Shown piece after piece: positions 17,134-22,190 of a stretch of DNA of 36,173 nucleotides. This DNA comes from Planctomycetota bacterium (GTDB lineage Bacteria; Planctomycetota; Phycisphaerae; SM23-33): assembly GCA_024275995.1 (NCBI GenBank), contig JAJRYB010000049.1, positions 1-36,173 of the forward strand, in the 5' to 3' direction. Position 1 is the stretch's first letter. Each line of letters opens with the position of its first letter. The translations under genes and the position numbers were made by a program. The notes beneath the pieces are model-generated. The model was not told the origin of the DNA and searched no databases. It saw only the letters and a program-made list of their open reading frames with translations.

Positions 17134-18183
17134 TCAATCTTTGCTGAAGATGTCCGGACCTTTCCGGTTCGAACCGGCTCCATCCCACTTGTGAGTCCCG
17201 ATCGCCTCGACGATTCGATTGGCGGTTCTTACCGCGGCCAGGCCGTCTGCGGCGGAAACCACCGGAGGCGTACCGTTTTCCACGGTCGAGCGGAACGCTT
17301 CTGCCTGTTTGCGAAGAGGCTCGGTCGAGTCGTCCACGACGAGCTGCTCCACCTTGAGCAGTCCGGTGTAATCCACGGTTTCAGCCAGCTCCGCGATGTC
17401 GTCCACCTCCAGTTCCCGCGCCATCTGGATCAGGTCCAGGTTTTCGCTTTTCTTTACGACCACGCCGACCTTTTTACCATAGTCCACGGAAACGTAAGCT
17501 TCCTCGGAAAAGATGCGCATCTTGCGTTCGGTTTTTACCGCCAATCGGCTGGCTGTGATGTTCGCGACGCACCCGTTGGCGAAAGCAAGCCTGGCGTTGC
17601 AAATATCTTCGTGGGCGCCGATCACGTTCACCCCGACGGCGCTTATGGATTCCACCTCGCTTGCGGCCAGCATCAGCACAAGGTCGATATCGTGGATCAT
17701 CATATCCAACACCACGCCCACGTCGGCTGAGCGGAACGTGAACGGGCTGATGCGGTGCGCCTCGATGAACTTCGGCTGGATCGTGTGCTTCTGAAGCGCC
17801 ACGGCGGCGGGGTTGAAGCGTTCCGTGTGTCCTACCTGGACGTTAGCGCCGGTTTCCCTGGCGAGGGTGATAATCTCCTCGCCTTCGACTGGATCGTTGG
17901 CGAGAGGTTTTTCGATAAGCACGTGCTTACCGGCCTGGATGAAAGGTCTTGCCGCTTCCAGGTGCGACGCCGTGGGGACGGCGATTATGGCGGCGTCCAC
18001 CAGGTCCACCGCCTCGGACGGATCTTCGAGCGCAAGGCAGTCTCGCTGTTTTGCGACGGCGCGGGCGGCAGAAGCCTTCACGTCCACCACGCAGACCAGT
18101 TCCGCTTCCGGCATATCGCCAAGTACGCGGGCGTGAAGCTTGCCCATTCGACCCGCTCCGACTACTGCTACACGAAAGCTCAC
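17134..18183 (-). CDS. Gfo/Idh/MocA-family dehydrogenase, GnnA-like candidate
   Basis: An NAD(P)-dependent oxidoreductase of 349 residues. VAVVGAGRMGKLHARVL is the Rossmann motif, and EKPLANDP contains the family EKP. VGHTERFNP and VLDMMIHDIDL carry the substrate-side His and Asp. The GTG start at 18183, with GGAGG eight bases upstream, overlaps the stop codon of the LpxA-like gene as GTGA, so translation is coupled; the longer open frame to 18435 lies over that gene and is discarded. In some bacteria GnnA oxidises UDP-GlcNAc at C3 so that GnnB can add an amine, giving amide-linked lipid A. Position next to lpxA supports that, but no GnnB aminotransferase is in the window. Confidence 0.85.
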   Translation of the reverse strand: MSFRVAVVGAGRMGKLHARVLGDMPEAELVCVVDVKASAARAVAKQRDCLALEDPSEAVDLVDAAIIAVPTASHLEAARPFIQAGKHVLIEKPLANDPVEGEEIITLARETGANVQVGHTERFNPAAVALQKHTIQPKFIEAHRISPFTFRSADVGVVLDMMIHDIDLVLMLAASEVESISAVGVNVIGAHEDICNARLAFANGCVANITASRLAVKTERKMRIFSEEAYVSVDYGKKVGVVVKKSENLDLIQMARELEVDDIAELAETVDYTGLLKVEQLVVDDSTEPLRKQAEAFRSTVENGTPPVVSAADGLAAVRTANRIVEAIGTHKWDGAGSNRKGPDIFSKD

Positions 18184-19064
18184 GATTGCGACCTCCGAAT
18201 TTCCGCCAGGCGCTCGGCAGAGATGTGCCGCAGCGTCTCGGGCGGAACCTGTCCACGAAACCGTTCCCGGTATCGGCCGAATACACCCTGGAGGCTTCGC
18301 TGGCAGAACTTGCAGAGTTCCGCCACCTCGCCTTCGGCGCCCAGGTTCACCAGTTGCTCGATCTTCGTCTGGAGGGCGGCCTCGTCTTCGAACAGTTCCA
18401 CCAGCGCCAGGCGAAGCTCCTTTTCTTCGTCGCACGTCAGGTTGGCGTTGGATATGCCGGCCTCGTTGAACCCGCGCACCGAAGGCGGCGTCAGTTCCTG
18501 ATCGTCGCTGTAAAAGTTCGTATATGGCGGCACGTCGCGGCGAACCGGCGTCCGCGGTCCGACGCGCGCATGACGTCCGATCGTGACGAAGTGATGCACG
18601 CCGGCGAGGTCTTCGACCACCGCGCCTCTCTGTATGCGAATGTGCCCCGCCAGAAGCACGTTGCGTCCAAGGTGCGCGCGATCGTCAACATAGCAATCGT
18701 GTGCAACGTGGCAGCCGTCGAGGAAAATGTTCTCGTTTCCGATGGTCGTAAGGTATCCGCCGGTCTCGGTGCCGATGTGAATCGTTACCCGTCGGGCGAA
18801 GTGGTTGGCGTGTCCGATCATCAACAGCGTCATCCCGCCGCGATATTTCAGATCCTGCGGAACTTCCCCGATGACGCACCCCTCCTGAAAGGTATTGCCC
18901 GACCCGATCGTCGTGTGCCCCATCACGGAGACGCGGCGCTGGAGAACGGTCCCCGGGCCGATCGTAACGTTCGGTCCGACCACGCAATACGCTCCGATCG
19001 TAACGTCCGGGGCAATTTGGGCGGACGGATCGATCTCTCGAACGACGGTGACGTCAGAGGTCAT
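18180..19064 (-). CDS. LpxA-like acyltransferase 2 (with catalytic His motif)
   Basis: A left-handed beta-helix protein of 294 residues with hexapeptide repeats (VTIGAYCVVGPNVTIG). It keeps the marks of LpxA: IGEVPQDLKY, VTIHIGT, and HVAHDC with the His expected to act as general base. LpxA moves a 3-hydroxyacyl chain from ACP to UDP-GlcNAc, the first step of lipid A. The last 110 residues, however, do not resemble the LpxA helical end: there is no GxNxxGLKRRGF motif but a different helical region with several Cys (LCKFCQRSL) and acidic stretches. The gene overlaps its neighbours by four bases on both sides. Confidence 0.8.
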   Translation of the reverse strand: MTSDVTVVREIDPSAQIAPDVTIGAYCVVGPNVTIGPGTVLQRRVSVMGHTTIGSGNTFQEGCVIGEVPQDLKYRGGMTLLMIGHANHFARRVTIHIGTETGGYLTTIGNENIFLDGCHVAHDCYVDDRAHLGRNVLLAGHIRIQRGAVVEDLAGVHHFVTIGRHARVGPRTPVRRDVPPYTNFYSDDQELTPPSVRGFNEAGISNANLTCDEEKELRLALVELFEDEAALQTKIEQLVNLGAEGEVAELCKFCQRSLQGVFGRYRERFRGQVPPETLRHISAERLAEIRRSQS

Positions 19065-19834
19065 CGTCGCATGCCTCGAAGGCTGGAGGACCCGGCGTTC
19101 AGGGCGTCCAGAAGCAGCTGAACGTACCGTCCCGGTTTCGGGCGTTCCATCAATTCACGCAGCGCCGCTTCGTTAACCTGGCGTCCCTCGCCGTTGAACA
19201 GTTTCCGGAAAACCTGCTTCAGCTCACGGATATCATCCTCGCCGAAGCCGCATCGCTTGAGGTTGTGCGAATTGACGCCCCGAACCCGGTACGGGCAGCC
19301 GTGGAGTATCGCGAACGGTGGCGCGTCATGATCTATGGCGACGTATCCCGCCGCGAACGTGTACGCGCCGATCACCACGCCCGGCGCGACCGAGGTGAAG
19401 GCGCTCATTCGAACATAGTCTTCTACGCGGGTATCGGGTCCGATCTGCGCGAGGTTGGCGAAAATTCCGTGATCGCCGAGCGTGGCGCCCGTTCCCACGG
19501 TGCACCCGTTCATTATCAGGTTGTCTTTGCCGATGCGCGTGGATGTCTCGCCTCCGGCGTAGATCGTAACGTGCTCCCGTATGCTGTTCGCCTCGCTTAT
19601 GACGCACTCGCCGTTTTCGGCGCTCCCGTCGGCAGAAAGCCCGATGGACGCCAGCGGAAAGACGTGATTGCCCTCGCCGAGCGTGGTTCGCCCGGTGATC
19701 GTCACGTTATTGTCTATCCTGCACCCCTCGGCGATCTTCACGTCCGGACCGATCCAGGCGAACGCTCCGATCGTCACGTCGTCGGCGAGTTTCGCGGCTG
19801 GGTCTACTGCGGCTTTTGGTGATATCTTCGGCAT
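19061..19834 (-). CDS. LpxA-like acyltransferase 1 (catalytic His motif missing)
   Basis: A 257-residue beta-helix protein with hexapeptide repeats. It has the overall length and the C-terminal signature of LpxA (RVRGVNSHNLKRCGF, then a three-helix end), and SIREHVTIYAGG in the middle. But where E. coli LpxA has the HIAHD segment this protein reads CTVGTG, so the catalytic His is absent, and the NQDLKY motif with the conserved Asp is replaced by an ADGSAENGE segment. It may be a heterotrimer partner, a regulator, or an acyltransferase with altered chemistry. It starts 21 bases after lpxC/fabZ and overlaps the second LpxA-like gene as ATGA. Confidence 0.8.
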   Translation of the reverse strand: MPKISPKAAVDPAAKLADDVTIGAFAWIGPDVKIAEGCRIDNNVTITGRTTLGEGNHVFPLASIGLSADGSAENGECVISEANSIREHVTIYAGGETSTRIGKDNLIMNGCTVGTGATLGDHGIFANLAQIGPDTRVEDYVRMSAFTSVAPGVVIGAYTFAAGYVAIDHDAPPFAILHGCPYRVRGVNSHNLKRCGFGEDDIRELKQVFRKLFNGEGRQVNEAALRELMERPKPGRYVQLLLDALNAGSSSLRGMRR

Positions 19835-19855: not shown

Positions 19856-21166
19856 CTATGCAGGATCGGCGTCTACCAGCATGAATTTGATTTCCGCCTC
19901 GGCGGCGATCACGTCGTTGACAAGGGCCCGGCATCGGCAGTGCCCCGTTCGTGTGCGGACGTGCAGCGTTTCGGCTTCCAGTATGAGCTGGTCCCCCGGG
20001 CGGACCGGGCGCCGCATTTTCACGCGGTCCATGCTCAGCAGCACGGCGACTTTCCCGGTGTGTTCCAGTCGTCTGCTCAGCAGGATACCCGAAAGCTGCG
20101 CGAGCGCTTCGAGGATCATCACACCCGGCATAATGGGCTGTCCGGGGTAATGGCCCTGGAAATACGGTTCGTTAATCGTAACGTTCTTGATTCCGACGGC
20201 GCGTTTCTCCGCTTGCAACTCGATGATCCGGTCCACCATCAGGAACGGGTAGCGGTGCGGCAGCAGGCGTATGATTTTGCGGATGTCCATGACCGGCTCG
20301 CGGGTCGCCCCGCTGCTGGCGTGGGCCAGGTCCAGGTGCTCGACAAGCCGGCGGATCAGCGACTGGTTCAGCTCGTGCCCGCTCTTGCAGGCGACCAGTC
20401 GCCCGCGCAGGCGAGAACCAAGCAGCGACAGATCGCCGATCAGGTCGCAAATCTTATGGCGGACGTATTCGTCCGGGAAGCGAAGCTCGTTATCGATCGG
20501 ACCGTCCGGACCGACAACAAGTACGTCGCCGGCGGTAAGGTGCGTGCCCAGGCCTCGCGCCTGAAGTTCCCTGGCTTCCGATTCCAGCGAAAACGTTCGC
20601 GCCGAGGCGAGCTGCCCGGCGAAATCATCCGCGTCCAGGCGGAAGCTGAACACCTGCCGTCCGATGTTCGGAATATCGGAGTAGTCCATATCGTAAAGGA
20701 TGTCCAGGCAATCGGACGATCCCGGAAGAGCGGCCAGCATCGTGTCACCGTCGGAGACCGAGACCGCCTCCTCGATGAGGTAGGTCTTGACCTCGGAGTC
20801 CTGGGCGACGATTCCCGCTTTTTGCAGCGCTTCGGTGAACAGCAGGGGCGAACCGTCGACGGAGGGGGTCTCCTCCGCGTTCATCTCGATGGTGAGGTTG
20901 TCTATCCCCAGGCCCCATACCGCCGCCAGTACGTGCTCGACCGTTTCGATAGCTACGGTTCCGTTCGCCAGCGTGGTGCGGCGCGGTCGCGGGACGACCT
21001 TGCTGATATCCGCGGGAATGCGCGAGGGAGAGTCCAGGTCGTCGCGGACGAAAACGATACCGGAGTTCTCCTGGGCGGGGGAGAACCGCAGGCGGCAGGC
21101 GACGCCGCTGAACAGGCCGCGACCTTCGACGGTGACGGCCGTTTTAATGGTCTTCTGACGAGCCAA
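19856..21166 (-). CDS. lpxC/fabZ: LpxC-FabZ fusion: UDP-3-O-acyl-GlcNAc deacetylase / 3-hydroxyacyl-ACP dehydratase
   Basis: A bifunctional protein of 436 residues. Residues 1-280 are LpxC: VEHVLAAVWGLG (zinc His), DEYVRHKICDLIGDLSLLG (zinc His and Asp) and CKSGHELN (catalytic His). Residues about 290-436 are FabZ: LLPHRYPFLMVDRI, then NEPYFQGHYPGQPIMPGV with the active-site His, and LEALAQ with the Glu. LpxC commits UDP-acyl-GlcNAc to lipid A, and FabZ draws the same 3-hydroxyacyl-ACP pool into fatty acids, so the fusion couples competing routes. Such fusions are known from Bacteroidetes and some Planctomycetes. Its start overlaps the end of lpxD by 23 bases. Confidence 0.95.
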   Translation of the reverse strand: MARQKTIKTAVTVEGRGLFSGVACRLRFSPAQENSGIVFVRDDLDSPSRIPADISKVVPRPRRTTLANGTVAIETVEHVLAAVWGLGIDNLTIEMNAEETPSVDGSPLLFTEALQKAGIVAQDSEVKTYLIEEAVSVSDGDTMLAALPGSSDCLDILYDMDYSDIPNIGRQVFSFRLDADDFAGQLASARTFSLESEARELQARGLGTHLTAGDVLVVGPDGPIDNELRFPDEYVRHKICDLIGDLSLLGSRLRGRLVACKSGHELNQSLIRRLVEHLDLAHASSGATREPVMDIRKIIRLLPHRYPFLMVDRIIELQAEKRAVGIKNVTINEPYFQGHYPGQPIMPGVMILEALAQLSGILLSRRLEHTGKVAVLLSMDRVKMRRPVRPGDQLILEAETLHVRTRTGHCRCRALVNDVIAAEAEIKFMLVDADPA

Positions 21167-22190
21167 GTTCCTTCAACCTCTTTTCCAATTTCGCGACGCG
21201 GTGCAGAAGCTCCGGAAGCTTTCGCCAGCAAATTGCGACGCGGAGCATCTCGCGTCCTTCGATTGCGGGAATACCGAACATGCTCATTCCCGGCGCAGCG
21301 TCGGCTGCGATTGCGGAAAACGCGGCGCACTGCACGCCGTCGCCGATCGTGATGTTATCGCGTATCCCAACGTGCCCGCCGAAAACAACGCCCTTTCCGA
21401 TCCGCGTGCTTCCAGCCACTCCCACGTGAGCGGCGAACATCGAACCGGCGCCGACTCGCACGTTGTGGGCGATCTGCACCAGGTTGTCGATCTTCGTTGC
21501 GGCGCCGATTACCGTCGAACCGAACTTCGCCCGATCCACGCAGGTGCACGCGTCGATTTCCACGTCGTCTTCGATAACGACGTCCCCCGCGTGCCGGAAG
21601 CGCTTGACGCCGCCGGGCGTCGGGAGGTATCCGAATCCGTCGTAACCGATCACGCTGTTGGGCCCGATCCTCACGCGGCTGCCGAGTTTGCATCCGTAGC
21701 GGATTACCGCGGATTCATACAGTATAACGTCGTCGCCAAGCTCCACGTCCGCGCCGACGAACGCGTTGGCGCAAAGCACGCAGCCGTCTCCGAGTTTCGC
21801 CCGCGGGCCTACGACGGCGCCCGGACCGATCGCCGCGTTACGTCCGATCGTCGCGGCTGGGTCTATCGCGGCAGAAGCGTGCACGCCGACGGGAGGAAGA
21901 TCGTCGCTCGGCGCGAAGGCTTCCAGCAGTTTTGCAATGGCTGCCGACACGTCGTCCACGCGCAGAAGGGTTTGGGCGCTCGACACCTTCGCGCTGCGGT
22001 GCACGATGGCGGCCGCGGCATTACCTTCGCCAAGCTGGGCGGCGCGCTTCTCGTCGCTCGCAAACGTCAGCTCCTGCGGGCCTGCGGAGTCTATCGCGGC
22101 GATACCGGTAATCGTAATAGCCTCGTCACCTTCGATCTCGGCGCCGATGAGGTCGGCTATCTGACGAATTGTCTGCGGATTGCGGATCAT
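21144..22190 (-). CDS. lpxD: UDP-3-O-(3-hydroxyacyl)glucosamine N-acyltransferase
   Basis: LpxD adds the second 3-hydroxyacyl chain in lipid A synthesis. The protein has 348 residues: an N-terminal uridine-binding domain (IRQIADLIGAEIEGD, ELTFASDEK), then a long left-handed beta-helix of hexapeptide repeats, and a C-terminal helix (LHRVAKLEKRLKEL). NLVQIAHNVRVGAGS holds the catalytic His, and VIGYDGFGY matches the family's GxDGFGF motif. It lies between skp and lpxC/fabZ, the usual order in bam-skp-lpx operons. Confidence 0.95.
   Translation of the reverse strand: MIRNPQTIRQIADLIGAEIEGDEAITITGIAAIDSAGPQELTFASDEKRAAQLGEGNAAAAIVHRSAKVSSAQTLLRVDDVSAAIAKLLEAFAPSDDLPPVGVHASAAIDPAATIGRNAAIGPGAVVGPRAKLGDGCVLCANAFVGADVELGDDVILYESAVIRYGCKLGSRVRIGPNSVIGYDGFGYLPTPGGVKRFRHAGDVVIEDDVEIDACTCVDRAKFGSTVIGAATKIDNLVQIAHNVRVGAGSMFAAHVGVAGSTRIGKGVVFGGHVGIRDNITIGDGVQCAAFSAIAADAAPGMSMFGIPAIEGREMLRVAICWRKLPELLHRVAKLEKRLKELGSSEDH

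What the first reader, a model, noticed from the sequence alone, without database searches (positions are those of the whole stretch)
18180..19834. Two tandem LpxA-like genes with complementary losses
The first protein lacks the HxxH motif with the catalytic His and the QDLKY motif but has the LpxA C-terminus; the second keeps HVAHDC and IGEVPQDLKY but has a different C-terminus. Seen in the sequence; the interpretation (heterotrimer, or two enzymes with different sugars) is inference. LpxA normally acts as a homotrimer, so split function within one trimer would be new.
Basis: partly seen in the sequence, partly recalled or inferred. Interest (0 to 1): 0.68.

Follow-up and report, generated by a model that had tools for sequence, protein, structure and literature searches.

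The report
Two half-active LpxA genes, probable heterotrimer
In one order of uncultured Planctomycetota, the enzyme that starts lipid A (endotoxin) synthesis is encoded by two adjacent genes: one kept only the catalytic half of the active site and the other only the nucleotide-binding half, so the two proteins probably have to assemble together to work, unlike the three identical subunits in every LpxA studied so far.

Summary
Both genes are genuine LpxA-family members, in tandem (4-bp overlap) downstream of lpxD and lpxC-fabZ. The pair is adjacent in 30 of the 38 genomes held for this order of Phycisphaerae. No genome has one gene without the other where the contig allows a check; five genomes lack both. 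Of 37 columns conserved in 114 other LpxAs, 9 are lost only in LpxA1 (including Q73, H122, H125, G143, H144, H160, E. coli numbering), 8 only in LpxA2 (including M118, N198, R204), and none in both. In solved LpxA trimers the GlcNAc/catalytic residues come from one subunit and the uridine/phosphate residues from its neighbour, so the losses follow the two halves of one interfacial site. Best explanation: an obligate LpxA1/LpxA2 heterotrimer with one complete site, LpxA2 supplying the catalytic side and LpxA1 the UDP side. Distance matrices of the two proteins co-vary beyond an operon control. An AlphaFold run on a read-through pair was inconclusive, and assembly and activity are unproven. A complete third LpxA elsewhere in the genome leaves the biological role open. 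Plant complex I gamma-carbonic anhydrase is a same-fold precedent.

The parts
19061..19834 (-). LpxA1, 257 aa: LpxA fold and UDP-pocket half kept, GlcNAc/catalytic half lost
   Evidence: AlphaFold model pLDDT 82, best PDB matches all LpxA
18180..19064 (-). LpxA2, 294 aa: GlcNAc/catalytic half kept, UDP-pocket half lost, new C-terminal tail
19061..19064 (-). ATGA: stop codon of LpxA1 overlaps start codon of LpxA2, suggesting translational coupling
19490..19492 (-). LpxA1 Thr115 at the position of catalytic His125 of E. coli
   Evidence: alignment
19253..19255 (-). LpxA1 Arg194 at the position of E. coli Arg204 (phosphate-binding)
   Evidence: alignment
18699..18701 (-). LpxA2 His122 at the position of catalytic His125 of E. 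coli
18852..18854 (-). LpxA2 Asp71 at the position of E. coli Asp74
18234..18317 (-). LpxA2 C-terminal conserved motif LCxFCxxSLxGxxGRxRExxRGxxPPEA, specific to LpxA2
19856..21166 (-). LpxC-FabZ fusion, same operon
21144..22190 (-). LpxD, same operon
17134..18183 (-). Gfo/Idh/MocA oxidoreductase downstream of lpxA2, conserved in the class; best NCBIfam match UDP-GlcNAc 3-dehydrogenase, below cut-off

Best explanation
LpxA1 and LpxA2 are the two subunit types of an obligate hetero-oligomeric LpxA, most likely a 2:1 or 1:2 heterotrimer. After gene duplication each copy lost the opposite half of the interfacial active site. LpxA2 provides the GlcNAc/catalytic side (Q73, D74, K76, H122, H125, G143, H144, H160, E. 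coli numbering). LpxA1 provides the uridine, phosphate and acyl-tunnel side (L116, M118, I134, F170, G173, N198, R204). By ring geometry a trimer made of both types has exactly one junction where an LpxA2 catalytic face meets an LpxA1 UDP face, so one complete site instead of three. It would transfer a hydroxyacyl group from ACP to a UDP-sugar as step 1 of lipid A synthesis. Shown: the residue pattern, its conservation, co-occurrence, tandem order and correlated divergence. Inferred: assembly, stoichiometry, activity and substrate.
For: Complementarity: 37 columns at least 85% conserved in 114 other LpxAs; 9 lost only in LpxA1, 8 only in LpxA2, 0 in both; entropy difference of UDP-pocket versus GlcNAc-pocket columns p = 1.4e-4. 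The assignment of the two pockets to different subunits is from PMC7072397. Both proteins keep their half under strong constraint: LpxA2 H125, D74 and K76 31/31; LpxA1 N198 31/31, M118 31/32, R93 and E94 32/32. Pair adjacent in 30 of 38 genomes of the order; both genes missing together in 5, in which LpxC(-FabZ) is followed directly by the Gfo/Idh gene. LpxA1 and LpxA2 distances correlate after controlling for LpxC-FabZ (partial r 0.63, permutation p 0.0005). ATGA overlap. All other LpxAs examined, from Planctomycetota, Proteobacteria and Campylobacterota, keep the catalytic histidines H122 and H125, and none shows the paired half-site loss.
Against: No direct evidence of association. AlphaFold2 on a read-through LpxA1-LpxA2 chain from a relative gave a low-confidence model (pLDDT 68.7, pTM 0.57). 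R204 is Ala or Gln in 7 of 31 LpxA1, and positions 152, 201 and 205 of its UDP pocket carry new fixed residues (R, N, C), so the substrate may differ. The absence of columns lost in both is by itself only p = 0.08. A third, complete LpxA exists in the genome and is the only LpxA found in four relatives, so the pair is not needed in every member of the family. Covariation was tested against only one control gene.
Confidence: 0.77

Rival explanations
1. LpxA2 alone is a homotrimeric acyltransferase whose acceptor is no longer bound through the usual uridine pocket (its changed C-terminus binds something else), and LpxA1 is a separate, catalytically dead UDP-sugar-binding regulator or scaffold.
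For: LpxA2 passes one LpxA equivalog cut-off and has its own strongly conserved C-terminal motif. LpxA1 has fixed novel residues R152, N201 and C205 in the UDP pocket.
Against: Gives no reason why LpxA1 should keep exactly the acyl-tunnel and UDP-face residues (L116, M118, I134, N198) that face a neighbour's catalytic side, why the losses are complementary, or why the genes are present and absent together.
Confidence: 0.13
2. LpxA1 and LpxA2 assemble with the third paralogue LpxA3, giving a three-component trimer.
For: LpxA3 is present in most genomes that have the pair and keeps both half-sites.
Against: LpxA3 lies at a distant locus and belongs to a separate old clade. Four relatives have LpxA3 without the pair, and two genomes (one 91% complete) have the pair without a detected LpxA3.
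Confidence: 0.05
3. LpxA1 is a decaying pseudogene, or the pattern is an assembly or alignment artefact.
For: Catalytic residues are lost to many different letters in LpxA1.
Against: Open frame in 32 sequences, with 24 invariant columns among 19 aligned LpxA1 proteins and most of the UDP half near-invariant; AlphaFold gives the LpxA fold; same pattern in independent assemblies.
Confidence: 0.01

Closest known systems
LpxA (UDP-N-acetylglucosamine O-acyltransferase; E. coli, P. aeruginosa)
   Same: Fold, family, operon position after lpxD and lpxC-fabZ, catalytic residues (split over two proteins)
   Different: Known LpxA is a homotrimer with three identical interfacial sites; here each gene keeps one half-site
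Plant mitochondrial complex I gamma-carbonic anhydrase heterotrimer (CA1/CA2/CAL2, PMC7447434)
   Same: Left-handed beta-helix trimer of diverged paralogues, interfacial sites degenerated so that one of three can be functional
   Different: Different enzyme, eukaryotic, part of complex I, activity unproven; here only two subunit types and reciprocal half-site loss
Ordinary lpxA duplications (for example Geobacter sulfurreducens, PMC3087551; the tandem copies of related Phycisphaerae family f11, L035/L036)
   Same: Two lpxA genes; in f11 tandem at the same locus
   Different: In f11 both copies keep both half-sites; the Geobacter copies were not examined here

Membership tests
LpxA protein family | Full-length sequence similarity to LpxA (NCBIfam PRK05289/TIGR01852, Pfam Hexapep + Acetyltransf_11) | tested here: met
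   Best family for both proteins; LpxA2 232 bits vs cut-off 226 (PRK05289), 220 vs 231 (TIGR01852); LpxA1 197 and 185, below both equivalog cut-offs; PF13720 51.6 and 23.9 vs 24.5
LpxA protein family | Clusters with LpxA in phylogeny | tested here: met
   Both lie inside the LpxA clade of Phycisphaerae, each one clade with support 100/99 or better
Functional homotrimeric LpxA | Catalytic His125 (with His122, Asp74, His144) in the chain | tested here: inconclusive
   Split result: LpxA2 met in all 31; LpxA1 not met in the window and in nearly all others
Functional homotrimeric LpxA | UDP-pocket residues Asn198 and Arg204 in the same chain | tested here: inconclusive
   Split result: LpxA1 met (N198 31/31, R204 24/31); LpxA2 mostly not met (N198 about 10%, R204 about 7%)
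Functional homotrimeric LpxA | All active-site residues of both half-sites in one chain | tested here: not met
   Neither LpxA1 nor LpxA2 carries both halves; LpxA3 of the same genome does
Functional homotrimeric LpxA | Homotrimer with acyltransferase activity | not testable with these tools
   Needs purification and assay
Heteromeric enzyme with composite interfacial site | Reciprocal loss of the two half-sites, conserved across species | tested here: met
   9 versus 8 columns, none shared
Heteromeric enzyme with composite interfacial site | Genes always occur together | tested here: met
   Adjacent in 30 of 38 genomes, 5 lack both, 3 not decidable or interrupted by contig ends
Heteromeric enzyme with composite interfacial site | Physical association of the two chains | tested here: inconclusive
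   Fused AlphaFold model of low confidence

The most novel reading that the evidence does not exclude
The pair forms an obligate heterotrimer with a single composite site and a new substrate or product: the fixed Arg152, Asn201 and Cys205 of LpxA1 and the new LpxA2 tail re-shape the UDP side, while the complete LpxA3 makes ordinary lipid A precursor. That would be a second, structurally asymmetric entry route into an acylated UDP-sugar lipid.
Probability: 0.3. Interest if true: 0.8.

Novelty: new variant of a known kind. Interest (0 to 1): 0.68.

Why it matters
Known LpxA structures are symmetric homotrimers. A naturally split LpxA would be a clean case of duplication, complementary degeneration and obligate heteromer formation in an enzyme of a core Gram-negative pathway. 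Related families still carry one gene, or two complete tandem genes, so the steps can be reconstructed and tested. It would also warn that the loss of a catalytic His in an annotated lpxA does not mean the pathway is broken, and it raises the question of which lipid A these little-studied bacteria make.

Tried and rejected
The read-through AlphaFold2 model of LpxA1-stop-LpxA2 from a relative in which both genes share a frame (alignment A3) gave pLDDT 68.7 and pTM 0.57; not used as evidence. A first profile of 19 LpxA1 sequences was too diverse for the collection scan; a six-sequence alignment worked. One sequence (L058) first sorted with LpxA2 by score proved to be an ordinary complete LpxA and was removed from the LpxA2 counts (counts still include it). 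Duplication time: the tree puts LpxA2 with the second tandem copy of f10/f11 (98/90) and LpxA1 nearer their first copies, but a single LpxA1+LpxA2 clade is not rejected (AU p 0.098), so I do not claim a date. Literature searches for heterotrimeric or split LpxA found none in the held library; that library is open-access papers only.

Full report
OBSERVATION. On the minus strand the window carries bamA, skp/ompH-like, lpxD (22190-21144), an lpxC-fabZ fusion (21166-19856), LpxA1 (19834-19061), LpxA2 (19064-18180) and a Gfo/Idh/MocA oxidoreductase (18183-17134) (bamA and skp named from the translations and their conserved position). LpxA1 and LpxA2 overlap by ATGA. Both have LpxA as best family. 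LpxA2 passes the PRK05289 LpxA cut-off (232 vs 226 bits) but not TIGR01852 (220 vs 231); LpxA1 falls below both (197 and 185). Against solved structures LpxA1 hits P. aeruginosa LpxA (6.6e-34) and LpxA2 hits E. coli LpxA (6.7e-44). The predicted LpxA1 structure is a left-handed beta-helix with C-terminal helices (pLDDT 82), and its 30 best PDB matches are all LpxA.

RESIDUES. In E. coli numbering the window's LpxA1 has D73 G74 S75 A76 T122 T125 P143 D144 A160 P161 G162 in place of Q D L K H H G H H Q F, but keeps R93 E94 L116 M118 I134 N137 G173 N198 R204 G206, with F at 170. LpxA2 keeps Q D L K H H G H H - F (H for Q161) but has A93 R94 I116 L118 H134 R137 R170 P173 S189 N204 A205. The window's own LpxA2 still has N198; 25 of its homologues have His there.

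RELATED GENOMES. The window lies in a 97%-complete assembly. The public records that encode its closest relatives are Phycisphaerae MAGs of the Planctomycetota. All 38 genomes held for the order were searched. In 30, complete LpxA1 and LpxA2 genes are adjacent, one genome carrying two such pairs. In G015 the pair is split by a contig break; in G001 the contig ends inside LpxA1; in G034 it ends after lpxC-fabZ. Five (G010, G014, G020, G029, G033) lack both, and there LpxC(-FabZ) is followed directly by the Gfo/Idh gene. No genome has one gene without the other where this can be judged.

STATISTICS. Against 114 other LpxAs (E. coli, other Proteobacteria, Campylobacterota, other Planctomycetota), 37 columns are at least 85% conserved. 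Nine are lost in LpxA1 and kept in LpxA2: Q73 H122 H125 D126 G143 H144 H160 F162 G201. Eight are lost in LpxA2 and kept in LpxA1: A12 R93 E94 M118 N137 G189 N198 R204. None is lost in both. By hypergeometric chance the absence of overlap alone is only p = 0.08. What makes the pattern meaningful is where the residues sit. PMC7072397 lists for E. coli and P. aeruginosa LpxA the GlcNAc pocket (Q73 D74 L75 K76 H125 G143 H144 Q161 F162) on one monomer and the UDP pocket (L116 M118 I134 I152 M170 N198 R204 R205 and neighbours) on the adjacent monomer. The entropy difference between LpxA2 and LpxA1 separates the two lists at p = 1.4e-4, and the GlcNAc list from all other columns at p = 2e-6. PMC6408518 confirms that the active site lies between adjacent subunits; it assigns Q161 differently for a bound peptide, so that one residue is uncertain.

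CO-DIVERGENCE. Over 26 genomes the LpxA1 and LpxA2 distance matrices correlate at r 0.77 and, after removing the shared signal of LpxC-FabZ from the same operon, at 0.63 (permutation p 0.0005). Only one control was used.

HISTORY. In the tree LpxA1 and LpxA2 are each one clade (100/99 or better). LpxA2 groups with the second of two tandem LpxA genes in families f10 and f11 (98/90), and LpxA1 lies nearer to their first copies. In f11 both copies keep both half-sites. A single origin of the pair within the order is not rejected (AU p 0.098). The story is therefore duplication of a complete lpxA, followed by complementary degeneration in the order, with the exact date open.

MECHANISM. In a cyclic trimer built from both subunit types there is always exactly one junction at which the catalytic face of an LpxA2 meets the UDP face of an LpxA1; the other two junctions are dead or half-dead. 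This follows from geometry and was not observed. A precedent in the same fold is the plant complex I gamma-carbonic anhydrase heterotrimer, in which only one of three interfaces can bind zinc (PMC7447434). Fixed new residues of LpxA1 (R152, N201, C205) and a conserved LpxA2-only tail (LCxFCxxSLxGxxGRxRExxRGxxPPEA) show that the complex has also gained features, so its substrate may not be plain UDP-GlcNAc.

WHAT STAYS OPEN. The same genome holds LpxA3, a complete LpxA of an older clade beside a homoserine dehydrogenase gene. Four relatives have only LpxA3; lpxC was found in all four and lpxB in three of them. So the pair is not universally required, and the division of labour is unknown. The fused-chain AlphaFold model was of low confidence and is not counted; no multimer prediction was available. 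No paper in the held library describes a split or heterotrimeric LpxA, but that library is partial.

VERDICT. Observation confirmed; interpretation supported and sharpened from 'split function' to reciprocal loss of the two halves of one interfacial site. New variant of a known kind, interest 0.68.

Noticed in passing
L037:4296-5108, L061:4164-4985, L191, L192, L194-L198, L200, L203, L205, L206, L211-L215, L217: Many other Phycisphaerae families have an LpxA in which D74 is replaced by I, M, L, V or T and K76 often by G, with all catalytic histidines kept and W152 and often R200 fixed; possibly an LpxA with a different acceptor.
   Followed up: no
L002:970-1800 (G000:C130): Third, complete LpxA paralogue (LpxA3) beside a homoserine dehydrogenase gene; H99 is S or N throughout its clade and K76 is G in some.
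   Followed up: partly
window 17134-18183 (-): Gfo/Idh oxidoreductase downstream of lpxA across the class, also where the LpxA pair is lost; resembles UDP-GlcNAc 3-dehydrogenase (178 bits, cut-off 450).
   Followed up: partly
L008 and L072 (G005): One genome carries two LpxA1/LpxA2 pairs, each with its own lpxD and lpxC-fabZ; the LpxA2 of one pair is split over two reading frames.
   Followed up: no
window 18234-18317 (-): LpxA2-only conserved C-terminal motif with two cysteines (LCxFC) and GRxRExxRGxxPPE of unknown role.
   Followed up: partly
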